NCBI RefSeq assembly: GCF_003814835.1
Contig: NZ_RKRG01000002.1
Coordinates: 434,001 to 498,000 of the forward strand
Source: Methanobrevibacter gottschalkii DSM 11977
GTDB lineage: Archaea > Methanobacteriota > Methanobacteria > Methanobacteriales > Methanobacteriaceae
Length of the DNA: 64,000 nt
Direction of reading: 5' to 3'
Below are positions 43,340 through 58,245 of this stretch, in pieces (the stretch's first letter is position 1; every line of letters starts with the position of its first letter). A program made the translations under genes and the position numbers. The notes beneath the pieces were generated by a model. It made no database searches and was not told the origin of the DNA. It worked only from the letters and a program-made list of their open reading frames with translations.

Positions 43340-44413
43340 ATGTTAAATTCATTATACGAAAAAGCCATAGCTAAAAGAGGATTTATTCATGATATTGATT
43401 CACAAACTGATGTTGAATCTCAATTGGAGTATAAATGGTTTAATAGAGATATTCTAGAAATTGATAATGGTTTTTCTATTGCTGCAGGAGATGGAAGTTT
43501 CAACAAAAAGAAATTTCTAACAACTAATTTTTGTGCAGTAGGCGCTGAATCTATAATTTATGATGGTAAAATTAAGAAGATAGATGATTCAGATATTTTT
43601 GATATTCCGCATGTCTCTTTTTTAGATGAATTGCTCAGTAATTATATGGCTATTTATGAACTTAAATGTGCACTTAGAACCATTAAAGAATATAATGTTG
43701 ATTATTATATGATTGATGGATCTATTTTAGGAGATTTACAAAACCCATTTCCAAGAGGTGCTAAATTACCCTCCAAACTTAAAAATAATTTAGATGATAT
43801 TCTACTTAAAGAATTTGAGAGAAGATTAAACATAAAAAAATATGGATTAATATTTCCAGAAATTAGGGATTCACTAAATCTTGTTGAATTTCCAAAAAAT
43901 GAAAATTCAAATAAAATTGAAGAATATAATCTTCACCTTGCTTCTATTGAAAAAATAATTCTATTAAAAGAAATTTTACAATTTAGAAAAAAAATCATTT
44001 CAATTTCAAAAACTTCATCTGATAATGATTTATTTCATTGGAATATTCCAGATATTGCATTCTTAGATAAATTTACAGAAAAGCAGGGAATTTCATTAAT
44101 TAAACATAAAACAGTATATAAAAAAACAGCATTTCCATACTTTAATGATTTTTTTAAGAGTATAACATTTACAATCTTTTATATTCGTTTACAAGATAAT
44201 AAAAATGTATTGAAAGTTGAATTGCCTTATAAGGCATCAAAAGAGGACGTATTTGAATTAATTAAAAAGATTAATGCATTAACAGTTCAAGGTTATCCAT
44301 ATTTACTTAATAAAGCACATAATGATGTTGTAATTACAGATAAGAATATTAAGGAATTATTAAAAATAGCTAAAATTTATGAAACAACTAATAGGGAAGT
44401 GATGTCATGGTAG
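43340..44413 (+). CDS. nurA: NurA 5'-3' nuclease
   Basis: A 357-residue NurA-domain nuclease. The two metal-binding Asp are Asp51 in FSIAAGDGSFNKK and Asp126 in DYYMIDGSIL. It forms a dimer on the HerA hexamer and resects DNA ends with Mre11-Rad50 during archaeal recombination. The 3' end overlaps herA by 7 nt. A degenerate element resembling the mre11 motif lies 51 nt upstream of its start. Confidence 0.87.
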   Translation: MLNSLYEKAIAKRGFIHDIDSQTDVESQLEYKWFNRDILEIDNGFSIAAGDGSFNKKKFLTTNFCAVGAESIIYDGKIKKIDDSDIFDIPHVSFLDELLSNYMAIYELKCALRTIKEYNVDYYMIDGSILGDLQNPFPRGAKLPSKLKNNLDDILLKEFERRLNIKKYGLIFPEIRDSLNLVEFPKNENSNKIEEYNLHLASIEKIILLKEILQFRKKIISISKTSSDNDLFHWNIPDIAFLDKFTEKQGISLIKHKTVYKKTAFPYFNDFFKSITFTIFYIRLQDNKNVLKVELPYKASKEDVFELIKKINALTVQGYPYLLNKAHNDVVITDKNIKELLKIAKIYETTNREVMSW

Positions 44414-45894
44414 TTGGAATTTGTATTGGTGAAACTTCACTTACAGAGGTAACCTTCATTTCAGATAAAATGCCAAAAGTTGGCGAATATGTTACAATTG
44501 AATATGATGGAAAGAAAGTTTTAGGAATGATTGAAAATTTAATAAGGGGAAATGATTCTTTAAATGTTGATATTAATGATTTCAATGCAATACAAAAGAT
44601 TTCAAGAATTGGTGCTGAAGATAATTATATTAAGGGTAGGGTAAAAATTCTCGGTGATGTTAATGATAATTTAAAATTACCAAGAACACCTGTACTTCCA
44701 GGAACAGAAATTCATCTAGCTGATGGAGAAATTTTAGATAAAATATTCAATGTAAAGAATCCCATTAAGTTGGGCTGTCTTGTAAATCAAAGTGATGTTG
44801 ATGTAAATGTTGAAGCAAATCCAATTTTATCAAGACATTTAGCTATTCTTGCAATGACCGGTGCAGGCAAATCAAATACTGTAGCTGTTTTAATAGATCA
44901 ATTATTAGGTTATAATGTTCCTATTTTCGTTTTTGATATGCATGGCGAATATAAAGATGCGGAATTTCCCAATGGCAATGTTAATGTAATAATGCCTAAA
45001 ATCAATCCTCATTATATGAATTTCTATGAAATCAAAAAATTGGTAAATATTGGTGCAAATAGTTTTATTCAGGAAAGACACTTTAGAAGAGCATTCAAAC
45101 AAGCTGAAAAGAATATTTCAGATGGTATAGCACAGACTAATAATTTCCTACAAATAATGTATGATATTTTAGATAAAGATTCACATGTTGAAGGATCAGA
45201 TAAACAAATTGTTGATGTAATGAATAAAATTGATGATGCAATGGAGAGATACTCCAATTTATTCGATAAAAACATTGGAAATATTTTATCTAATGTCAAA
45301 AGAGGGTATGTTAATGTTTTGGATTTAAGTCAAGTTGATGAGTCAGTTGCAAGTGTTTTAGTAAGTCACATATTAAGAAACGCACTTAAAAGAAGTAAAG
45401 ATGCGGCACATACTGGTGATAAAAAAGATTTAATTGATAATTCAGTATTCTTTATTTTAGAAGAAGCACATATTTTAGCTCCGAATAAGAGAGAATCCGA
45501 TTCTAAAAGATGGATTCAAAGAGTTGCAAGAGAAGGTCGTAAATTCGGTTTAGGTTTATGTTTGGTAAGTCAATCCCCAAAAACAGTTGATCATGATGCA
45601 TTATCTCAGATGAACAACATGATTATTTTAAGGCTTGTTGAACCTGAAGATCAAAGGCATGTTCAATCAGCTAGTGAAAGCTTATCACAAGATTTGATTA
45701 ATCAGCTTCCATCATTAAACGTTGGGGAAGCTATTGTTTTAGGTTTGATGAGTAAAATACCAACACTTGTTAAAATTGACATGTTTAAAGGTCGTCGTCA
45801 TGGTGATGATATGGATTTAATCTCTTATTTCAAAGAGTTAGGTGAGGATTCAGATTATAATGATGAAACAGTAGATATGGGGTATGATTACTAA
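44407..45894 (+). CDS. herA: HerA DNA helicase
   Basis: A 495-residue hexameric HerA/FtsK-type ATPase. The N-terminal HAS-barrel (residues 1-~130) is followed by Walker A MTGAGKSNT (Lys155), then FVFDMHGEY (Walker B-like), IRES-type LEEAHILAPN, and the arginine-finger and sensor region RWIQRVAREGRKFGLGL. It unwinds DNA ends with NurA. The start is within nurA, so translation is coupled. mre11-rad50 follows 178 bp downstream, the usual archaeal arrangement of these genes. Confidence 0.93.
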   Translation: MVVGICIGETSLTEVTFISDKMPKVGEYVTIEYDGKKVLGMIENLIRGNDSLNVDINDFNAIQKISRIGAEDNYIKGRVKILGDVNDNLKLPRTPVLPGTEIHLADGEILDKIFNVKNPIKLGCLVNQSDVDVNVEANPILSRHLAILAMTGAGKSNTVAVLIDQLLGYNVPIFVFDMHGEYKDAEFPNGNVNVIMPKINPHYMNFYEIKKLVNIGANSFIQERHFRRAFKQAEKNISDGIAQTNNFLQIMYDILDKDSHVEGSDKQIVDVMNKIDDAMERYSNLFDKNIGNILSNVKRGYVNVLDLSQVDESVASVLVSHILRNALKRSKDAAHTGDKKDLIDNSVFFILEEAHILAPNKRESDSKRWIQRVAREGRKFGLGLCLVSQSPKTVDHDALSQMNNMIILRLVEPEDQRHVQSASESLSQDLINQLPSLNVGEAIVLGLMSKIPTLVKIDMFKGRRHGDDMDLISYFKELGEDSDYNDETVDMGYDY

Positions 45895-45957
45895 TTCCAT
45901 ATTTTTTTATTATTCATCTTATTTTCGATATATTATTCTTAATGCAATTTTTATTTA

Positions 45958-45970
45958 TTTTCAAATGCTC
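45958..45970 (+). promoter_or_regulatory. TTTTCAAATGCTC element, copy C
   Basis: It reads in the sense of mre11, 102 nt upstream of its start, in the herA-mre11 gap. A TATA-like GATATATTATT (around 45927-45937) lies upstream, placing the element near a predicted start. CTTAAATGCTTTA at about 46013-46025 is a weaker second match. Confidence 0.55.
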
Positions 45971-46072
45971 TTTAAAAAATATTAAATATGGAAAAGCATA
46001 AACTATTATTCACTTAAATGCTTTAGAAAGTGTTTAAATTGGTTATATACAAAAATTTTAAAAGGTAATATA

Positions 46073-47314
46073 ATGAAATTTGCACATTTAGCAGATACTC
46101 ATTTAGGTTATCGTCAATTTGGTTTAATTGAACGTGAAAAAGACTTTTATGAAGTATTTGAAAAGGTTATAGATAAAATAATTGAAGAAAAAGTGGATTT
46201 TGTAATTCATAGTGGGGATTTATTTGAAACTGCAAGACCGTCTCCCAATGCACTTTTAGTTTTCCAAAAAGGTTTATTAAAATTAAAAGGTGCAGGAATT
46301 CCTATGTATGCAATTGCAGGAAATCATGATTCTGTAATGCGTCAAGGAGCTATCCCTCCGCAAGTAATATTTAAAAAACTGGGTTTAAAAGTAATTAGTC
46401 CAATTAACACTGATTATATGCATGGAGATATTTTTATTGCAGGTTTGCCTTACTATCCATCATCACAGAGTAAAACTCTAAAATCTAAATTAGCAGAATT
46501 ATCTAAAAAGGCAGCCAATCATGAAAAATCTATTCTAGTATTGCATCAAGGCATTGACAAATATCTAGGATATCAATATGAATTAGAAATAGGAGATATT
46601 CCAGATAATTTTACTTATTATGCTTTTGGTCATATTCATAAGTATATTAATGAATCATTTGGTAATGGAAGATTAGTTTATCCCGGATCTGTTGAAATTT
46701 GGAAAACTGATGAAGTTGAAGATTATAAAAAGAACGGGAAAGGTTTCGTTGTTGTTGATCTTGAGGGTCCAAAACCAATTGTTAAAAGGGTCAAAATCGA
46801 TGTTCCTCGTGAATTTATTAAAAGATCACTTGATTATGAAAACTTAGAAAGTGGTATTGCAGGTATTAAAGAAACAATTAAGGACTTTGATAAACAGCCT
46901 ATTTTGAATTTAACAATTAAAGATGTTGAATCTGATACAAGTGGTGTTTATGATATTATTAATGAAGATTTAGGTGATTTGTCTTTAATGATTAGACCAA
47001 AATTTAATATTAAAGGTGAAGAGCTTATTGATGAAGATAATATTAAAAAGAATGGTTTGGGCGCTAAAGAAATATTGGTGGAACAATTAAAGAAATATAA
47101 TGATGATAATGTAACTCAGTTAGCTATTGACTTATATGAATATTTATCAAAAGATAAGATTGAAGAGTCAAAAGATTTAATTGAACAGTTCTATAATGAC
47201 TTTTATAATTCAACTAAGGATGAAGTTGAATTACAAACAGAAGAAATTGAACCTGAAACCGCCCAGGTGAAGTCAGAAGATGTTCAAGCAACATTTAATG
47301 AGGTTTTAAAATGA
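46073..47314 (+). CDS. mre11: Mre11 DNA repair exonuclease
   Basis: A 413-residue SbcD/Mre11 phosphoesterase. The five metal motifs are present: LADTHLGYRQ (Asp8, His10), HSGDLFE, AGNHDSV, LHQGID and FGHIHKYI. A cap domain and a C-terminal acidic tail follow. It processes double-strand breaks as a complex with Rad50. The stop overlaps the rad50 start by 4 nt (ATGA). Confidence 0.93.
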   Translation: MKFAHLADTHLGYRQFGLIEREKDFYEVFEKVIDKIIEEKVDFVIHSGDLFETARPSPNALLVFQKGLLKLKGAGIPMYAIAGNHDSVMRQGAIPPQVIFKKLGLKVISPINTDYMHGDIFIAGLPYYPSSQSKTLKSKLAELSKKAANHEKSILVLHQGIDKYLGYQYELEIGDIPDNFTYYAFGHIHKYINESFGNGRLVYPGSVEIWKTDEVEDYKKNGKGFVVVDLEGPKPIVKRVKIDVPREFIKRSLDYENLESGIAGIKETIKDFDKQPILNLTIKDVESDTSGVYDIINEDLGDLSLMIRPKFNIKGEELIDEDNIKKNGLGAKEILVEQLKKYNDDNVTQLAIDLYEYLSKDKIEESKDLIEQFYNDFYNSTKDEVELQTEEIEPETAQVKSEDVQATFNEVLK

Positions 47315-50058
47315 TTTTCACAAAATTACGATTAAGAAATTTCAAATCTCATGAGGATACAATTATTAGATTTGAAAAAGGCATTAGTGTTATTGTAGGT
47401 GAAAATGGTGCGGGAAAATCAACAATTCTGGAAGGCATTAGTTTTTCTTTATTCAAACAGCACACTGCTAAAAAAATTGATGACCTGGTTAGAAATAATG
47501 CACAATCAATGTTTGTTGAATTAAAATTCATTTCTAATGGAAAAAAATACAAGATTGTTCGTGAGAAAAAATCAAACTTAAAATCAGTATTATATAAGAA
47601 AACATCTTTAGATGGTGAATATGTTCACGTTTGCAGTGGGGATAAAGAAGTAGCAAATGAAATATATCAAATTTTAGATATAGATTCTGACTTATTCTTA
47701 AATGCAATTTATATTAGACAAGGTGAAATAGCTGAATTGGTTGATAAAACTCCCGCTGAGAAAAAACAGTTGATTGCTAAATTATTGGGTATTGATTCAT
47801 TAGAAAAATCTTGGAAACACTTATTGCCCTTCATTAATGATTATGAAAATCAACTTTCTGAACTTAAAGGTAAACTTTACAATTCAAAGGAATTAGCAGA
47901 CGATTTGACTAGGAAAAGAGAGGAGTTAAATTCATTAAAACAAAGAGGATATGAACTTGAGGAAAATATTGAAGAAGTCAGCGTATTACTTAAAGAGATT
48001 TCTGAAAGTAAAAGGGACATGGAAAGAGAAAAGGAAATCTATGAAACTCAGGTTAATAATCTTGAAAATGAAGAAAAAACATTATCTAAATTGGAACAGG
48101 ATAAACATGTAATTCAAAATAATTTAGATAATATTAGAGAAGCTGAAGAACAAATTTCAAGATTGGAGAAATATGTTTCAAAATTAGATGTTTATCTTGA
48201 TTTTGAAAAATCTGTTTTAAGTATACAAAATTTAAAACAGAAAGAACAAGAAATTGAGGATAAAATTAAATCTATTGCTCAACAAAAACAACTTGTTGCA
48301 GACAATAAAGAGAATTATAATAAATTTTTAGCTTCAGATGAGGAAATTAATAAATATAATAATCAAAAAGTTAATTTCGAAAAAGAATTAGCTACCATGG
48401 CTAAACTGGATAAAGATAAAAAAGATCTTTTAAAAGAAGTTCAAAATGAACGTAATGAAGTTAACCAATTTTTTGCAAGAGCTAAAGATAAGTTAGATGA
48501 TTATGGATTGGACCAGGATAGATTGGCTAAAATAAATGATATTAATAGTATTGAAGATGCCACAAACAATTTCTTTGATGAGATATCTGGAAAAATTAAA
48601 AGTTTATCTGATGATATTATTGCTAAGAATGAAGAAATCGTTGTATTTAAGCAAAACATTAAATCAAGCCAAAAACCTTTAAAAGATTTGAAAGATGTGG
48701 ACAGTAAATGTCCTGTTTGTCAAGCGGATATTGATGATAATAAAAAATCTGAATTAATCAAACAGTACAATGCTGAAATCGAAGAAAACACTAAATTAAT
48801 CTCAGAATATGAAGAAAGTGTTCGTTTACTCACTAAGAATAAAGCAAGTTTTGAAGATAAATCTGATAAATTATCAGAATTATCCAAACAAATTATTGAA
48901 TATAAACATAAATTCTCTCATTTGGAAAATCAATTAGTTAAATTAAACAAGCTTGATGATGAACTTGTATCTAAGGACTTTATTAGTGGTAAATTAGGTG
49001 AATTAATTCTTATTATTGCAAATAAAAAAGAAAATCGTGAATCTTATAAAGAATTTTATGATGCATATAATCAGGCAAAAGGTGCATTAGAGGTTTTAGG
49101 TAGTGAAATAGACGCACAATATAAATTAAAACAAGTTAAAAATGAAATTGATAATCATGTAACTAATATTAAACTTGCAATTGAACAAGATCCTCATTTA
49201 AGTAGAGATATAACTGCTGCTGAACTTCAAGATCGTATTACTGATTTAAAACATAAAAATGAGGAATACAATCAACTTAAAGGCTTTATTCAAAATAAAA
49301 AATCGTATTTAACACAACTTGATTCAGTTAAAGAGGACATTGGAATGTCTATTAATCAGATAGATATTCTTAAAAATAAAATCAAAGCTTCTGTTTATGA
49401 TACTGAAAAATACGAACAAATTATTTATCATTCTGATATATATGAAAGAAGATTTAATAAGTTTAACAACGAACTTTCAGGCATTAAAGGACAAGCACGC
49501 GAAACAATTACTCAAGTTAAAGATTTGACTGGTAAATTAGAATCTGTTAAAGTATTCCAAAAACAGTATGATGACATTTCAGATTATATTAATTTACTAA
49601 ATCATTTTAGAAGCTTATATAGTAAAAATGGCATTCAAAAAGATTTAAGAAATATTTCAAGGCCATTGATTCAAAAGTATACTAAAGACTTCTTTAATGA
49701 ATTTAACTTTAATTATTCTGATCTGACTCTTGATGATGAATATGATGTGACTGTTTATGGTCCTGAAGGGGAATCTTCAATGAGTATGGTTAGTGGTGGT
49801 GAAAAAATAGCTATAGCATTAGCTTTAAGACTTGGTATTACACAAGCAATGGCTAATGGGGAATTGGATACTATTTTACTTGATGAGCCTACAATTCATT
49901 TAGATTCATCAAGAAGACACGAGTTAATCAATTTATTAAAAGAAATGTCTGTACTGCCTCAAATGATAATTGTGACTCATGAACCTCAACTTGAGAATGC
50001 TGCAGATAATTTAATTAAAGTAGAAAAAGTGAACGGTGTTTCAAAAGTAATAATGTAA
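47311..50058 (+). CDS. rad50: Rad50 ATPase
   Basis: A 915-residue SMC-like ATPase. Walker A is VGENGAGKSTIL near residue 31. Two long coiled coils (about 170-450 and 490-750) flank the zinc-hook CPVC at 467-470. The C-terminal half has the signature SMVSGGEKIAIALALRLG, Walker B LDTILLDEPTIHLD and the H-loop VTHEPQL. It tethers DNA ends and controls Mre11. The length is normal for archaea. A perfect hairpin follows the stop. Confidence 0.94.
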   Translation: MIFTKLRLRNFKSHEDTIIRFEKGISVIVGENGAGKSTILEGISFSLFKQHTAKKIDDLVRNNAQSMFVELKFISNGKKYKIVREKKSNLKSVLYKKTSLDGEYVHVCSGDKEVANEIYQILDIDSDLFLNAIYIRQGEIAELVDKTPAEKKQLIAKLLGIDSLEKSWKHLLPFINDYENQLSELKGKLYNSKELADDLTRKREELNSLKQRGYELEENIEEVSVLLKEISESKRDMEREKEIYETQVNNLENEEKTLSKLEQDKHVIQNNLDNIREAEEQISRLEKYVSKLDVYLDFEKSVLSIQNLKQKEQEIEDKIKSIAQQKQLVADNKENYNKFLASDEEINKYNNQKVNFEKELATMAKLDKDKKDLLKEVQNERNEVNQFFARAKDKLDDYGLDQDRLAKINDINSIEDATNNFFDEISGKIKSLSDDIIAKNEEIVVFKQNIKSSQKPLKDLKDVDSKCPVCQADIDDNKKSELIKQYNAEIEENTKLISEYEESVRLLTKNKASFEDKSDKLSELSKQIIEYKHKFSHLENQLVKLNKLDDELVSKDFISGKLGELILIIANKKENRESYKEFYDAYNQAKGALEVLGSEIDAQYKLKQVKNEIDNHVTNIKLAIEQDPHLSRDITAAELQDRITDLKHKNEEYNQLKGFIQNKKSYLTQLDSVKEDIGMSINQIDILKNKIKASVYDTEKYEQIIYHSDIYERRFNKFNNELSGIKGQARETITQVKDLTGKLESVKVFQKQYDDISDYINLLNHFRSLYSKNGIQKDLRNISRPLIQKYTKDFFNEFNFNYSDLTLDDEYDVTVYGPEGESSMSMVSGGEKIAIALALRLGITQAMANGELDTILLDEPTIHLDSSRRHELINLLKEMSVLPQMIIVTHEPQLENAADNLIKVEKVNGVSKVIM

Positions 50059-50069
50059 ATTACATTATT
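50049..50069. terminator. Hairpin between rad50 and the MTH538-like gene
   Basis: AATAATGTA and TACATTATT form a perfect 9-bp stem with a 3-nt loop that includes the rad50 stop, followed by TTATTATTTTTTT. It would end the rad50 transcript and lies at the 3' ends of two convergent genes. Confidence 0.55.
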
Positions 50070-50081
50070 CTTATTATTTTT

Positions 50082-50477
50082 TTACATAGTTTCAGCTGCA
50101 TCTTTAATTGCATCAATTATGCAGTTCGCATTCCAGCCAACAATGGTTGCTGCTTTTTCTTCTAATTTAATTGGGACTTCTTCTACACCTAATGGTCTAA
50201 CTAAAACAATAGGTATTTCATATTTTTCGCTTACAATTAATAAATCTTCAAAAAGTTCTTTATTATCATTATAAAGGCCGGCCAATAAAACAATCCTATC
50301 TACTTTTTGATAAAATTCTTCACCGGCAGTGGAATATGCTCCAGACATGGATTCTTTCCATAAAAAATCTGTCTTTGAGTATAATTTTTCTGTAAACTGA
50401 TTATATTCTTTGTTTGTGTCAAATCCATTTGTTATTATTAAATTGTAAATTTTATTGTCTCTTTCATCTTCAAACAT
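50082..50477 (-). CDS. MTH538/ThsB-like TIR-like (DUF1863) protein
   Basis: A 131-residue single-domain protein of the MTH538 TIR-like family (DUF1863). The hallmarks are IYNLIITNGFDTNKEY at the first strand, RIVLLAGLYNDNKELFEDLL in the middle, and IVLVRPLGVEEVP followed by TIVGWNANCIIDAI at the end, matching 'V.PWG.E..P' and 'IVGWN...I..AI'. Members have a flavodoxin/TIR-like fold; ThsB of Thoeris antiphage defence is a relative. There is no ThsA-like partner. To my memory the founding MTH538 gene also lies near rad50-mre11 in Methanothermobacter, so the neighbourhood may be conserved. Confidence 0.72.
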   Translation of the reverse strand: MFEDERDNKIYNLIITNGFDTNKEYNQFTEKLYSKTDFLWKESMSGAYSTAGEEFYQKVDRIVLLAGLYNDNKELFEDLLIVSEKYEIPIVLVRPLGVEEVPIKLEEKAATIVGWNANCIIDAIKDAAETM

Positions 50478-50580
50478 TTTCTCACCTTGCTTTTATTTTA
50501 AATATTATAATATAAAAATATTTATTAATTTTAAAAATGTAATTTTAATTATAACGATTTATTTTAAGGAATTATTTTTT

Positions 50581-51861
50581 ATGAAAGCAGCAGTAATTGG
50601 ATTAGGCGTAGAAGGAAAAAAAGCAGTAAACTCTCTTTTAAATCATGGATGGGAAGTTTATGCCACTGATTTGAATATTAATGTTGATTTATCTGGTTTA
50701 AATCTACCAAATTTGTCACTTGATGTAATTGATGAAACTCAAACAGTTTCAATTGTTGGAGATGGCATAACTCTTGATTTAGGTTTTACAAATCCTTATG
50801 ACATTGATCAGTGCGATGCAGTAGCAATTAGCCCTAGCATGTTTGGAGGAGAATTTGCAACAAAATTATTAAAAAATTCAAATTTACTAAGTGATGTTGT
50901 AGACAAACATAAAGATATTTTTACTATCGGAATTACAGGGACTAATGGCAAAACAACCACTGTACATATGTTAAAAGAAATCTTGGAAAATGCTGGTAAA
51001 AATGTTTTAGTTGGAGGAAATGGGGGTGGAGGATTTTCAGGTTATTATGACTTAATTCTTGAAGCTAATGAAGGGGAATATGATATATTGCTTGTAGAGG
51101 TATGTGATATGACTCTTGATTTCTGCAAATATTGTTTTGATTTTGACATGATTGGTCTTACTAATATTGGTAATGATCATATGAATGTTCATAAAACCAT
51201 TGCCAACTATAAAAATTCTCTTGTTAGATTTTTTGAGGGAAAAACAGTATTCACTGCATTTAATCAAGATTTTAACACTGATTTTAAAGAATCTAGCGAT
51301 AAAAACATTCCTTATTTTGAATATCAGGATGAATTAAAATTATTTGGCAAATTTAATTTACTTAATGCAGGTCTTGCAACAGCCATAGCAAGGGAATTGA
51401 AAATACCTAAAGATGTTATTAAATCAACACTTTCTGAATTTAATGCTGTTGAAGGCAGATTAGATGTTTACAAAATTAATAATGTTTCTGTTTATGTTGG
51501 AAAAACTGATAATTCCGATGCATTAACTTCAATTTTATCTGAAAAAGATTTTTATGCTATATTTATAGGCACGCCCCGCCATAATGAAATCCACAGATTG
51601 GATATTTTAGATGCTGCTGTTAGGTATAATCCGGAAGTTATTGTATTATTCCCTGGATTGGATGATACTCTGGACATGGCGGTTTATAGATTAAATTCCC
51701 TCGGTTATATGGGGAATATCATTACGGTAAATTCTCTTGATGAAATTATCGAATTAGTTGCTGAGTATTCACATGAGGATGCTATATTAATAGGGGGCAA
51801 TGGTCAAGATACTCTTATTAATATTCAAGAAAGAATTAAGTTAATTTCTGAAAATTTATAG
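50581..51861 (+). CDS. Mur ligase-family protein (pseudomurein or related)
   Basis: A 426-residue Mur-type ATP-dependent amide ligase. An N-terminal Rossmann part (AVIGLGVEGKKAVNSLL) resembles MurC/D. The central P-loop is IGITGTNGKTTTVHML near residue 120, followed by IGLTNIGNDHMNVHKT, and a C-terminal domain with NAVEGRLDVYKINN (seen as VEGRLDV) and SDALTSIL. Methanobacteriales use Mur homologues to build pseudomurein peptides. This one is a candidate, although the exact substrate cannot be read. The VanW-like surface gene lies 80 nt downstream, also suggesting a cell-wall theme. Confidence 0.75.
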   Translation: MKAAVIGLGVEGKKAVNSLLNHGWEVYATDLNINVDLSGLNLPNLSLDVIDETQTVSIVGDGITLDLGFTNPYDIDQCDAVAISPSMFGGEFATKLLKNSNLLSDVVDKHKDIFTIGITGTNGKTTTVHMLKEILENAGKNVLVGGNGGGGFSGYYDLILEANEGEYDILLVEVCDMTLDFCKYCFDFDMIGLTNIGNDHMNVHKTIANYKNSLVRFFEGKTVFTAFNQDFNTDFKESSDKNIPYFEYQDELKLFGKFNLLNAGLATAIARELKIPKDVIKSTLSEFNAVEGRLDVYKINNVSVYVGKTDNSDALTSILSEKDFYAIFIGTPRHNEIHRLDILDAAVRYNPEVIVLFPGLDDTLDMAVYRLNSLGYMGNIITVNSLDEIIELVAEYSHEDAILIGGNGQDTLINIQERIKLISENL

Positions 51862-54498: not shown

Positions 54499-55734
54499 TT
54501 AAGGAATTTTAAAGTCTTTTGTTTTAACACTGTTATTTTTACAGAAAGTCTTAAAATCACAAGCACTGCAGGTTCTTTCATCCGAATCTCCTTTCCATGC
54601 ATCTTGAATTTTACATCCTTTCATCTCTTTAATTAATGATTCTTCAATATTTGAAACAACACTATCAAATTTTAAAAGTGCTTTTTCTCTTTCATATTCA
54701 TCAACATTTATAATTCTAATGGATCTGTCAATTTTGAAGTTATCACTTAATTCAGGAGCTTTATCATCTTCTTGCCAGCTATTAATTAACTCAATGTCTT
54801 TATCATATTCATATCCAATATCAGTTAATCCATTGTTTAATTCATCTTTAATTAAAATCAAGTCCTCTTTTGAAGGAACTAATTCATTTAAGTAAAAAAT
54901 AATTCCAGCTATTATTGGTTTAGATGATTTCTGTTCTGATCTAAGCCATGAATAAGTTAATATCTGTTGTTCATGAGTTTCCCATTTATTTTCAACTTTA
55001 GGATTGTTAACTTTTTCAGGGGGTCTTTTCATTCCTTTATAATCAATAAGTATTTCATACTCGTCATCTTTGTCAAATTTAGCAATTCTTTTCTGGAAAT
55101 TCTCATCTTTCTTTAAGTATTCTATAATTCTATTATTATAATTATCAAAATTACTTTGTTCTAATGTTTTATTGATTTTAACAGATGATGAAACATCCAC
55201 CACACCATTAATTCCATAGTAATTTGATCTACTAGTGTTTTCATCATAGTTGGGCATATCACGTATGCCTTTTATTAAGTGTTCAGATGCGTCAATTAAT
55301 GGGAATAAATCTTTTCCCCAAATATTTATTGCTTTTTCAGCTCTAGCACTTGCTAATTTCTTATGGTCATGTTCATTTAAATCATCAATTGTTAATTCTT
55401 CATCTGATTGATTATGAATACTGAAAAATAAATCCTCATCAAATGGGTAAAGGCCTCTAACCTGTAATCTCAAATCAATTAAATCCTCAATTGGTCTAAT
55501 ATCCTTTTTCCAGTCCCAAGGAAAATGCATATTGTTTTGTTCCCATTGTATGTATGCTTCTTCGATAACTCCATGAATAAATTCCCCAAACCATCTTTGA
55601 ACAGGTTTTGATGGTGGTAGTGTTCCTTTATTTTGGTATCTGTATTGTAAATTACAAGTTAAGTATGATAATAAATCTCCAGTTACACTGTATTCTGGAA
55701 TCATATATGATTTTGATCTTGATGGCAATTTCAA
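54499..55734 (-). CDS. PD-(D/E)XK nuclease with Fe-S cluster (AddB/RecB-like)
   Basis: A 411-residue RecB/Cas4-type nuclease. The order is FGEFIHGVIEEAY (His54 and Glu), an Asp near GINGVVDVSS, YEILIDYKG (Asp-x-Lys) and HEQQILTYSW (Gln-x3-Tyr). Cys27 in YLTCNLQYRY and C-terminal Cys389, 392 and 398 in CSACDFKTFC would hold a [4Fe-4S] cluster, as in AddB and Cas4. It starts TTG with AGGAAGTG upstream and lies 11 nt after the UvrD-like helicase, with which it likely forms a helicase-nuclease. No cas1 or CRISPR repeat is present, so Cas4 function is not supported. Confidence 0.8.
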   Translation of the reverse strand: MKLPSRSKSYMIPEYSVTGDLLSYLTCNLQYRYQNKGTLPPSKPVQRWFGEFIHGVIEEAYIQWEQNNMHFPWDWKKDIRPIEDLIDLRLQVRGLYPFDEDLFFSIHNQSDEELTIDDLNEHDHKKLASARAEKAINIWGKDLFPLIDASEHLIKGIRDMPNYDENTSRSNYYGINGVVDVSSSVKINKTLEQSNFDNYNNRIIEYLKKDENFQKRIAKFDKDDEYEILIDYKGMKRPPEKVNNPKVENKWETHEQQILTYSWLRSEQKSSKPIIAGIIFYLNELVPSKEDLILIKDELNNGLTDIGYEYDKDIELINSWQEDDKAPELSDNFKIDRSIRIINVDEYEREKALLKFDSVVSNIEESLIKEMKGCKIQDAWKGDSDERTCSACDFKTFCKNNSVKTKDFKIP

Positions 55735-55745
55735 ATTAACACTTC

Positions 55746-58184
55746 CTAAATTAAATAAATTTCATTAAATCCAATATATTTTTCATCTCTACTCCATCCA
55801 AGAGCAACATTTGGGATATTAAAATGATTATTCTTTTTGTTATATCCTTCAATAGCAGGGTTTAGGCCAATTAGCAATAATACTTTTTCAGCTCTTGAAA
55901 ATGCAACAAAGTAAAGTCTTGTTAAATCATCAAATGATTTGTCTTTTTCTCCTCTTTTACTTTGTCCAATCTTGCTGTATCGTCTTATTCTATCCTCAAG
56001 TGTTGTTTCTTCTTTAATTGATTTTGGGAATCTTAATTTCTGAGTCCTTATGTCATTTTGCTTAAATCTAGAACCCACATCTACAATAACTAATGGAAAT
56101 TCTAATCCTTTTGACTGATGGATGGACAATACATTAATTCTATTGTCAGGTAATGTTTCAAGTAATGATTCATCAATCTGTATTCCTCCAGTAGATAAAG
56201 GAATGAAAATATTCCAGATAGCTTCAAGAATAGATTCTCTTTCTTGTTTTTGGGTTCTAAAAGAAATATTTGAATGATAATCATTAAAAAATCCTGTTTG
56301 TGTAATGGATTGTGTAATTGCTTCTAGATATACAATACCTTCCACGTCTTCTTGTAATTCTTCAATCCAAGTCGTTATTTTGTATGCAAGTTCCATCAAA
56401 CTTGCAGTTTTGGGCCATTCTTCATGCCCTCTTGGTCTTCTAAGTTGCCAATATGTAACAAATTGGGATAATGTTATTGGTTCATGAGGTTCAGGATTTA
56501 ACTTAATAAAATCTTTAGCCTTTATTCTCCAACGTCTCATGTTGTGTGTTGCTAATTTAGGTATTGTCTTATCAGATTTTTGCACAGTACTATCAGGATC
56601 AATACATTCAAGCATTAAACCACAAAAAATACCAACAATATCAATATCTTGAAGCTCAATTCCTCTGGGGTTAAATACTTCAATCGGTTGTCTTAATTTT
56701 TTAAGATTTTTTCTAAGATAATGTAAGAATGAACGGTTGCCGTAATATGTTTCTTTAGGTGAATATGATAAAATTGCAATGTCTGATGCTGAACCGTAAT
56801 CACTATCTAACTTAAGAGTTATTTTTTCAATTTCTTTTCCTGCTTTTACATTTTCCGCTTTAATTTGCTGTAATCTTGCTATGTCAATTACACCATTTAC
56901 TTTTTCATAATATTCCTTATTTAAAACCTGCAGTACTTTAATTTCAGCTTCACCTTTGTTTACAAGTTGATTGATTAACTTTGATAAATCTTTTGCAAGC
57001 ATTTCTGGGTTGTTTCTAAACATTCCTAAAATTGGCATTTTATCATTATCGAAATCTGGAGCAATGATTTTAGGCTTATTTTCAACTCTTGCATTCTGAT
57101 ATTCACTATCCAATTCAGCAAATTGATTGCAATGTTCTATTATATTTTCTGTTGAACGATAATTTGTCCTTAAATTTATTTCTTCAACTTCAATACCTAG
57201 TTTTTCATTAATGCGTTCTTGGTAAGTTGTGAATAAATCAACGGTGGCTCCTCTAAATCTATAAAGTGACTGATCATCATCACCTACTACAGTTATATTG
57301 CCATTATTTGCAATAGCGGAGCGGGCAATTGTAAAGTAAATATCTTCTTGAAGTAAATTTGTGTCCTGATATTCGTCGATTAGAACAATTTTAGTTTCAT
57401 TTAAAAATGTTTCTAATTCATTGTTTTTTAATTTTTTAAGAAATTCTGATTCAAGCATAGCAAAATCAATTGTATTTCTATTTTGAAGTTTATCTTCATA
57501 TTTTTTTATACAGTCAAGGGCAATGCGTGCTCCACTATCTTTTTGGGTTTTATTGTATAATTCATTGAAATCGACCTGATCGTAATAGATTCTATTTTTT
57601 ATTTCAATTAGAATTTCACTTAGTTTAGATGGTTCTTCGATTTTTTCTTTACCGCTCACTTCTTTAAGATATTCTACTAGATTTTTATTGAGATATTTTT
57701 CATCTTCAATAATGATTTTTATCATTGCGGAGTTAGCTACAAACCCTTCAATAACTATTGCTTGATTTTCACCGGGTTTTTTATATTCTCTAAGCAATTC
57801 TTCCGCAATGCTGTCTGTTGTACCTATTTTTATTTGATTAAAATCAATTCTTGTAATCTTTGTAATATTGTTGAAATCGTGAATTGTGTTTAGAAGATGA
57901 TTTTTAATCATATCTCCCCAACCTAATATTCTTGAATACAATTCATCAGCTGCTTTTCTTGTAAATGTTGTAGCTATTATTTCATTTGGTTCAATATCAT
58001 CTACAAAAATGTATTTTAATATTTTCAGCACCATTACAGTTGTTTTTCCAGAACCTGGTCCTGCAACAAGAAATAATGATTTATTGCAAGGAGCTAAAAT
58101 TGCATTTTTCTGTTCTTTATTTGAAGAAATATCTCTTTTAAGTATATTAACAACCATGTCTTCAAATTCTTCATATGAAATCAT
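55746..58184 (-). CDS. UvrD/AddA-like superfamily 1 helicase
   Basis: A ~812-residue SF1A helicase. Walker A is LVAGPGSGKTTVMVL (Lys47). Motif Ia is IATTFTRKAADEL, motif II LIDEYQDTNLLQ, motif III VVGDDDQSLYRFRGA, motif IV NYRSTENI, motif V NVLSIHQSKGLEFPLVIV and motif VI YFVAFSRAEKVLLLIG. It lacks a C-terminal nuclease, which the next gene supplies. ATG 58184 is 5 nt behind a GAGGG site. The promoter has a symmetric TATA box at 58273 and a TTTTCAAATGCTC element at 58246. Confidence 0.88.
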   Translation of the reverse strand: MISYEEFEDMVVNILKRDISSNKEQKNAILAPCNKSLFLVAGPGSGKTTVMVLKILKYIFVDDIEPNEIIATTFTRKAADELYSRILGWGDMIKNHLLNTIHDFNNITKITRIDFNQIKIGTTDSIAEELLREYKKPGENQAIVIEGFVANSAMIKIIIEDEKYLNKNLVEYLKEVSGKEKIEEPSKLSEILIEIKNRIYYDQVDFNELYNKTQKDSGARIALDCIKKYEDKLQNRNTIDFAMLESEFLKKLKNNELETFLNETKIVLIDEYQDTNLLQEDIYFTIARSAIANNGNITVVGDDDQSLYRFRGATVDLFTTYQERINEKLGIEVEEINLRTNYRSTENIIEHCNQFAELDSEYQNARVENKPKIIAPDFDNDKMPILGMFRNNPEMLAKDLSKLINQLVNKGEAEIKVLQVLNKEYYEKVNGVIDIARLQQIKAENVKAGKEIEKITLKLDSDYGSASDIAILSYSPKETYYGNRSFLHYLRKNLKKLRQPIEVFNPRGIELQDIDIVGIFCGLMLECIDPDSTVQKSDKTIPKLATHNMRRWRIKAKDFIKLNPEPHEPITLSQFVTYWQLRRPRGHEEWPKTASLMELAYKITTWIEELQEDVEGIVYLEAITQSITQTGFFNDYHSNISFRTQKQERESILEAIWNIFIPLSTGGIQIDESLLETLPDNRINVLSIHQSKGLEFPLVIVDVGSRFKQNDIRTQKLRFPKSIKEETTLEDRIRRYSKIGQSKRGEKDKSFDDLTRLYFVAFSRAEKVLLLIGLNPAIEGYNKKNNHFNIPNVALGWSRDEKYIGFNEIYLI

Positions 58185-58245
58185 ATTTTCCCTCAAATTT
58201 AATATAATTTAATTTATGTTAATCATATTAATAAAATAATGTAAA

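What the first reader, a model, noticed from the sequence alone, without database searches (positions are those of the whole stretch)
50082..50477. MTH538/ThsB-like TIR-fold protein beside rad50
The 131-residue product shows DUF1863 marks (IVLVRPLGVEEVP, TIVGWNANCIIDAI). Relatives act as the sensing, NAD-derived-signal-producing ThsB of Thoeris defence, but no ThsA effector is near. From memory, MTH538 also sits near mre11-rad50 in Methanothermobacter, so the association may be conserved. It could be a DNA-damage or phage sensor that uses the Mre11-Rad50 context.
Basis: partly seen in the sequence, partly recalled or inferred. Interest (0 to 1): 0.6.

Follow-up and report, generated by a model that had tools for sequence, protein, structure and literature searches.

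The report
Inactive TIR-like protein beside rad50
This is the Methanobrevibacter version of MTH538, a small protein related to the phage-alarm enzyme ThsB; nearly all methanogens of its family inherit it as an ordinary chromosomal gene, but it has lost the residue that makes the alarm signal, so it is probably a repurposed housekeeping protein and not a Thoeris defence sensor.

Summary
The ORF at 50082-50477 is real, lies on the minus strand, and encodes the ortholog of M. thermautotrophicus MTH538 (PDB 1eiw). The TIR/flavodoxin-like fold and homology to ThsB-type TIR proteins hold. A Thoeris sensor role does not: the catalytic glutamate of ThsB (E85) is Leu79 here and absent in all 93 distinct family members, but present in 11/11 ThsB-type controls. 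The SHSW and WIxxE motifs are gone too. The assembly (99.98% complete) has no SIR2-type or macro-type ThsA. The gene evolves under strong purifying selection (dN/dS about 0.05-0.12) and is found in 133/151 Methanobacteriales genomes, unlike a mobile defence gene. The link to rad50 is real (convergent within 400 bp in 61/62 congeneric genomes, and near it in all eight Methanothermobacter genomes) but is not an operon. In Methanothermobacter and other deep genera the gene is the last of a codirectional msrA-korA-korB-MTH538 run facing rad50. Methanobrevibacter lost korAB and msrA from the site and kept this gene; Methanosphaera moved it away from rad50. Most likely it is a domesticated, non-catalytic TIR-fold protein that binds a ligand or partner through its conserved RPxGxE...GWNxxCI edge. 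Its ligand and pathway remain unknown.

The parts
50082..50477 (-). MTH538-family (TIR/ThsB-like fold) gene, 131 aa; Leu79 stands where ThsB-type proteins have the catalytic Glu; conserved R94-P-x-G97-x-E99 and G114-W115-N116-x-x-C119-I120
50482..50486 (-). GGTGA ribosome-binding site, 4 nt upstream of the ATG (50477-50475)
   Evidence: sequence
50478..50580 (.). 103-bp AT-rich intergenic stretch between two divergent genes; should hold both promoters (inferred)
   Evidence: sequence
50049..50069 (.). perfect 10-bp inverted repeat AATAATGTAA-a-TTACATTATT spanning the rad50 stop codon, followed by a T-rich stretch: possible bidirectional terminator (inferred)
   Evidence: sequence
47311..50058 (+). 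rad50, convergent neighbour (not an operon partner)
   Evidence: synteny
46073..47314 (+). mre11
44407..45894 (+). herA
43340..44413 (+). nurA
50581..51861 (+). pMurD2 pseudomurein peptide ligase, divergent neighbour (ORF list gives an upstream TTG at 50455; the homologous start is ATG 50581)
   Evidence: NF053647, 623.6 bits, cut-off 550

Best explanation
The gene encodes the MTH538 ortholog: a single-domain TIR/ThsB-fold protein that descends from or shares an ancestor with ThsB-type TIR NADases but has lost the catalytic glutamate and the surrounding active-site motifs (shown by alignment). It has become a vertically inherited gene kept by nearly all Methanobacteriaceae and Methanothermobacter (shown by distribution and purifying selection). 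The most likely working mode is non-enzymatic: the conserved loops after strands 4 and 5 (RPxGxE and GWNxxCI), on the edge where flavodoxin-like folds bind nucleotides, bind a small ligand or a protein partner and act as a sensor or scaffold (inferred). Its neighbourhood is positional inheritance: the ancestral order was pMurD2 < | > msrA > korA > korB > MTH538 > < rad50 < mre11 < herA < nurA, and the lineage of this window lost msrA-korA-korB from between pMurD2 and MTH538 (shown by comparison of genera; the direction of change is inferred). It is not part of Thoeris.
For: Catalytic-Glu column: L 75, I 6, H 5, V 3, D 3, Q 1, E 0 of 93 distinct orthologs, against E in 11/11 ThsB-type controls. 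The same pairing, L79 to the Glu, appears in an independent hhalign alignment (prob 99.6%, E 8e-24). In solved ThsB (6lhy/9b7d) and 8fz9 the profile puts a Glu in that column, and in MTH538/1eiw it does not. The Glu is the proven catalytic residue of ThsB (E85Q dead; PMC10022894). No PF08937 protein (E<=1e-3), SIR2_2 or ThsA_Macro in the assembly. Present in 133/151 genomes; dN/dS 0.05-0.12 in unsaturated pairs. E99 and W115 invariant in 93/93, R94 in 90, N116 in 90, G97 in 88. msrA-korA-korB-MTH538 codirectional in 8/8 Methanothermobacter genomes, one g16 genome and at least one g15 genome. korB found in only 14 of 151 genomes while this gene is in 133.
Against: Absence of the canonical Glu does not prove absence of all activity: E99 is invariant and could serve in a different active site, and three members have Asp at the Glu position. 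No ligand or partner is known. The model is of moderate confidence (pLDDT 75.7). The direction of gene loss is inferred, since no outgroup outside the order was found to carry the gene.
Confidence: 0.62

Rival explanations
1. An active ThsB-like sensor that senses phage and makes an NAD-derived signal for an unrecognised effector encoded elsewhere.
For: Homology to ThsB: PADLOC ThsB E=2.4e-5, hhalign 99.6% with ThsB-type proteins, Foldseek hits to TIR 8fz9 and EcThsB 8wcf.
Against: Catalytic Glu missing in 93/93 and SHSW/WIxxE motifs lost; no ThsA of either type in the genome; core-gene distribution and synteny unlike defence genes; true PF08937 ThsB-type genes in the order are patchy (55/151 genomes with any match, some of them members of this family).
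Confidence: 0.07
2. A DNA-damage sensor or accessory factor of Mre11-Rad50, which is why it stays beside rad50.
For: Near rad50 in many genera: 61/62 genus-g1 genomes within 400 bp, g9 13/15, single genomes of g3, g5, g7, codirectional 23-48 bp downstream in g10; near it also in Methanothermobacter. In Methanosphaera it instead converges on nucS, another DNA-repair nuclease.
Against: Convergent orientation almost everywhere, so no co-transcription; 1-14 kb apart in several genera; hundreds of kilobases away in the four Methanosphaera-type genomes where both genes lie on one contig; at least four g13 genomes have rad50 but no detectable copy. In Methanothermobacter the neighbouring Rad50/Mre11/HerA are only 21-33% identical to those here, yet the gene is still there.
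Confidence: 0.12
3. An enzyme with a relocated active site: a nucleotide N-glycosidase or deoxyribosyltransferase-like activity using E99, as suggested by the related YtoQ/MilB/DNPH1 fold group.
For: E99 invariant 93/93; weak profile hits to YtoQ (8of6, E=0.005) and Pfam Nuc_deoxyri_tr3; Foldseek matches to YtoQ, NDT 6evs and MilB.
Against: E99 is also common in ThsB-type proteins that keep the normal Glu (7/11), so it is probably structural or substrate-positioning; Foldseek hits beyond 1eiw are weak (E>=1e-3) and include many unrelated flavodoxin-like folds.
Confidence: 0.12
4. An accessory or regulatory factor of the OAFO-type 2-oxoacid:ferredoxin oxidoreductase KorAB (with MsrA), retained for another task where KorAB was lost.
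For: msrA-korA-korB-MTH538 codirectional with about 50-130 bp between korB and MTH538 in 8/8 Methanothermobacter, and codirectional with the same three genes in g16 and g15. A paralog sits downstream of sulfur-carrier thiS (and thiI) in Methanobrevibacter.
Against: korB ortholog found in only 14 of 151 genomes, while this gene is in 133, so KorAB cannot be its partner in Methanobrevibacter.
Confidence: 0.15

Closest known systems
MTH538 (PDB 1eiw; Cort et al. 2000 J Mol Biol 302:189, cited in PMC6790972 and PMC6718144)
   Same: Ortholog: profile E=3.6e-28, same RPYGxExVP and GWNxxCI motifs, same gene position facing rad50; Foldseek best hit (E=1.6e-8, TM 0.74/0.86).
   Different: 29% identical over the fold alignment; 20 residues longer with a longer strand-2 region; the msrA-korA-korB genes upstream of MTH538 are missing here.
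ThsB (Thoeris TIR NADase; 6lhy, 9b7d, 8wcf; PF08937)
   Same: Same superfamily and flavodoxin-like TIR fold; shared RPxGxE and W(N) C-terminal motifs with the SHSW subgroup of PF08937.
   Different: No catalytic Glu, no SHSW, no WIxxE; no ThsA in the genome; vertically inherited, not mobile.
Response-regulator receiver (CheY-like) domains
   Same: Overall alpha/beta doubly wound fold (Foldseek hits); MTH538 has been called CheY-like (PMC6718144).
   Different: Pfam gives no receiver-domain match for any family member; the phospho-acceptor site was not examined residue by residue.
YtoQ / nucleoside deoxyribosyltransferase-like proteins
   Same: Weak profile and fold similarity.
   Different: Weak scores, shorter protein, catalytic Glu not identified.

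Membership tests
MTH538 ortholog group | Significant full-length similarity to MTH538 and the shared motifs | tested here: met
   L163 contains the gene matching 1eiw 100% and the family alignment joins both
MTH538 ortholog group | Same genomic position (between pMurD2 and convergent rad50) | tested here: met
ThsB_TIR (PF08937) | Pfam match above the 21.2-bit gathering score | tested here: not met
   no match for P0001; some orthologs exceed it (L070 30 bits, L071 26 bits)
Active TIR NADase / ThsB | Catalytic glutamate on helix alpha-C (ThsB E85) | tested here: not met
   Leu79; 0/93 family members have Glu, confirmed by hhalign
Thoeris system | ThsA effector (SIR2-SLOG or TM-macro) in the genome or beside thsB | tested here: not met
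   no PF13289 or PF20016 match at E<=1 in the assembly
TIR-type fold | Five-stranded parallel sheet with alternating helices, similar to TIR structures | tested here: met
   AF2 model pLDDT 75.7, beta-alpha x5; Foldseek 1eiw 1.6e-8 and TIR 8fz9 prob 1.00, TM 0.6
Functional partner of Mre11-Rad50 | Co-transcription or consistent co-occurrence with rad50 | tested here: not met
   convergent; unlinked in Methanosphaera-type genomes; rad50 without the gene in at least four g13 genomes
NAD-derived signal production | NADase or cyclase activity | not testable with these tools
   needs biochemistry

The most novel reading that the evidence does not exclude
A TIR immune enzyme was domesticated early in the Methanobacteriales into a catalytically dead, housekeeping nucleotide (NAD/ADP-ribose-type) or redox sensor, whose conserved edge still binds the ligand that ThsB relatives consume, coupling ferredoxin/sulfur metabolism (ancestral korAB-msrA neighbourhood; thiS-linked paralog) or DNA-end repair to nucleotide state.
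Probability: 0.18. Interest if true: 0.6.

Novelty: new member of a known kind. Interest (0 to 1): 0.33.

Why it matters
The PADLOC profile search scores this protein as ThsB, and 16 of 35 family members hit Pfam's ThsB_TIR model, so automatic annotation could count a core methanogen gene as Thoeris. Showing that the branch lacks the catalytic Glu in 93/93 members corrects that reading. The branch is also a natural case of an immune-type TIR fold kept as a housekeeping protein in archaea. The korA-korB-MTH538 gene run seen here gives a concrete first place to look for the function of a structure solved in 2000.

Tried and rejected
(1) Thoeris membership: rejected, no catalytic Glu and no ThsA. 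(2) Operon with rad50: rejected for nearly all genomes (convergent). The codirectional cases (g10, g13) look like local rearrangements. (3) A phage or plasmid origin: P0001 finds only distant (23-25% identity) TIR-domain proteins on plasmids and one contig in the phage set. The single IMG/VR hit (L134) is a contig carrying mre11 and rad50, so host DNA at that end. (4) NAD-capped RNA decapping by TIR proteins (PMC10937652 abstract) was considered; it involves the same kind of NAD cleavage and was not pursued given the lost Glu. (5) The phylum search found no relative outside Methanobacteriales; only one other genome of the phylum was available.

Full report
OBSERVATION. The 131-codon ORF is at exactly 50082-50477 on the minus strand. 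It starts with ATG after a GGTGA ribosome-binding site and shares a 103-bp divergent intergenic stretch with pMurD2, whose homologous start is ATG 50581. Its stop lies 23 bp from that of rad50, so the two genes converge. A perfect 10-bp inverted repeat followed by T-rich sequence spans the rad50 stop, which would fit a terminator (inferred). Pairs of close orthologs give dN/dS 0.05-0.12, so the protein is under purifying selection.

IDENTITY. The protein alone finds MTH538 (1eiw) at 1.5e-12, and a 35-member family profile finds it at 3.6e-28. The locus L163, from a one-contig genome of 1,751,377 bases, carries an ORF identical to the 1eiw residues used as query, so it is MTH538 itself. The AlphaFold2 model (pLDDT 75.7, pTM 0.69) is a beta-alpha doubly wound fold. 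Its Foldseek best hit is 1eiw (1.6e-8). Weaker hits follow, including a B. cereus TIR protein (8fz9), YtoQ, nucleoside deoxyribosyltransferases, CheY-like receivers and EcThsB. Pfam ThsB_TIR does not match P0001 but matches 16 of 35 family members weakly, two of which were scanned singly and lie above its cut-off. PADLOC ThsB matches 34 of 35.

CATALYTIC SITE. As controls I took 11 ThsB-type TIR proteins, three from Methanobacteriales genomes and eight from haloarchaeal and rhizobial plasmids. They all carry SHSW (one SHAW), NxSV-like and WIxxE motifs. Profile-profile comparison of the two sets gives probability 99.6%, E 8e-24, so homology is secure. In a joint alignment the catalytic Glu column is E in 11/11 controls and E in 0/93 distinct MTH538-family sequences (L 75, I 6, H 5, V 3, D 3, Q 1; window residue Leu79); H, S and W of SHSW and W of WIxxE are also lost. 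hhalign pairs L79 with the same Glu independently. The control profile aligns that Glu with the Glu of WVRYE in ThsB structures 6lhy/9b7d and with a non-Glu residue in 1eiw. I take this Glu to be E85, since it is the only Glu in that stretch and the chain numbering is offset by 1-2 residues; E85Q abolishes ThsB activity (PMC10022894). By contrast the family has fixed E99 (93/93), W115 (93/93), R94 (90), N116 (90) and G97 (88) in the loops after strands 4 and 5. In the tree the ThsB-type set falls on one side of a fully supported branch (100/100).

THOERIS. The window's assembly (1.88 Mb, 99.98% complete) has no PF08937 match at 1e-3, no SIR2_2 and no ThsA_Macro. PF08937 proteins in the order are patchy (55 of 151 genomes with any match, some of them members of this family), whereas this gene is in 133 of 151 and undetected in family f2 and most of genus g13.

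NEIGHBOURHOOD. In genus g1, 61 of 62 genomes with both genes on one contig have rad50 convergent within 400 bp, the other at 714 bp; in g9 it is 13 of 15. In g8 and one g6 genome the genes are convergent but 5-14 kb apart. In g10 and g13 they are codirectional. None of the 19 Methanosphaera-type (g12) genomes shows linkage, and in the four where both lie on one contig they are about 0.7-1.9 Mb apart; there the gene converges on nucS in all four loci inspected. In all eight Methanothermobacter genomes, one g16 genome and at least one g15 genome, the order is pMurD2 < > msrA > korA > korB > MTH538 > < rad50, with rad50 about 1-5 kb on, and KorAB is identified as a 2-oxoacid:ferredoxin oxidoreductase of the OAFO type. 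korB orthologs were found in only 14 of 151 genomes. The simplest reading is that the Methanobrevibacter-side lineages lost msrA-korA-korB from this site, bringing MTH538 next to pMurD2; the direction is inferred because no outgroup was found to carry the gene. A second copy in many Methanobrevibacter genomes lies directly downstream of thiS, sometimes with thiI between.

MECHANISM. Shown: fold, homology, loss of the TIR catalytic residue, broad retention, purifying selection, gene order. Inferred: that the protein has no enzymatic activity and works by binding a ligand or partner at the conserved edge. Not known: the ligand, the partner, the process. A role with Mre11-Rad50 is possible but only positional evidence supports it; a role with KorAB may have been ancestral but cannot hold in Methanobrevibacter.

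NOVELTY. The protein is an ortholog of a structure known since 2000, so it is a member of a known kind.

Noticed in passing
window 43340-50058 compared with L073-L075, L163-L167: The HerA-Mre11-Rad50 cassette beside MTH538 in Methanothermobacter is only about 21-33% identical to the one at the same position here, while pMurD2 (about 43%) next to it, and korB between Methanothermobacter and genus g16 (about 65-70%), diverge much less. This suggests in-place replacement of the whole DNA-end-resection cassette by a distant version.
   Followed up: partly
L081, L082, L147-L152, L154: A second MTH538-family paralog in many Methanobrevibacter genomes sits codirectionally just downstream of thiS (ubiquitin-like sulfur carrier), with thiI between them in two loci.
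   Followed up: partly
L064-L067, L153: In Methanosphaera-type genomes the MTH538-family gene converges on nucS (DNA mismatch endonuclease) and lies beside a nitrilase-family gene. The same arrangement in L153, from a g1 genome (G096), suggests Methanosphaera contamination of that assembly.
   Followed up: partly
L134: IMG/VR contig IMGVR_UViG_2684622740_000002 ends in rad50, mre11 and the MTH538-family gene, i.e. host chromosome beside or mistaken for a provirus.
   Followed up: no
window 54499-58196: A UvrD-type helicase and RecB-family nuclease pair lies about 4 kb from the Mre11-Rad50 cassette, and the whole stretch is kept in order in most Methanobrevibacter loci, forming a DNA-repair island.
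   Followed up: no
genome G099: One congeneric genome has 20 ThsB_TIR matches, many in long proteins, unlike the window genome, which has none.
   Followed up: no
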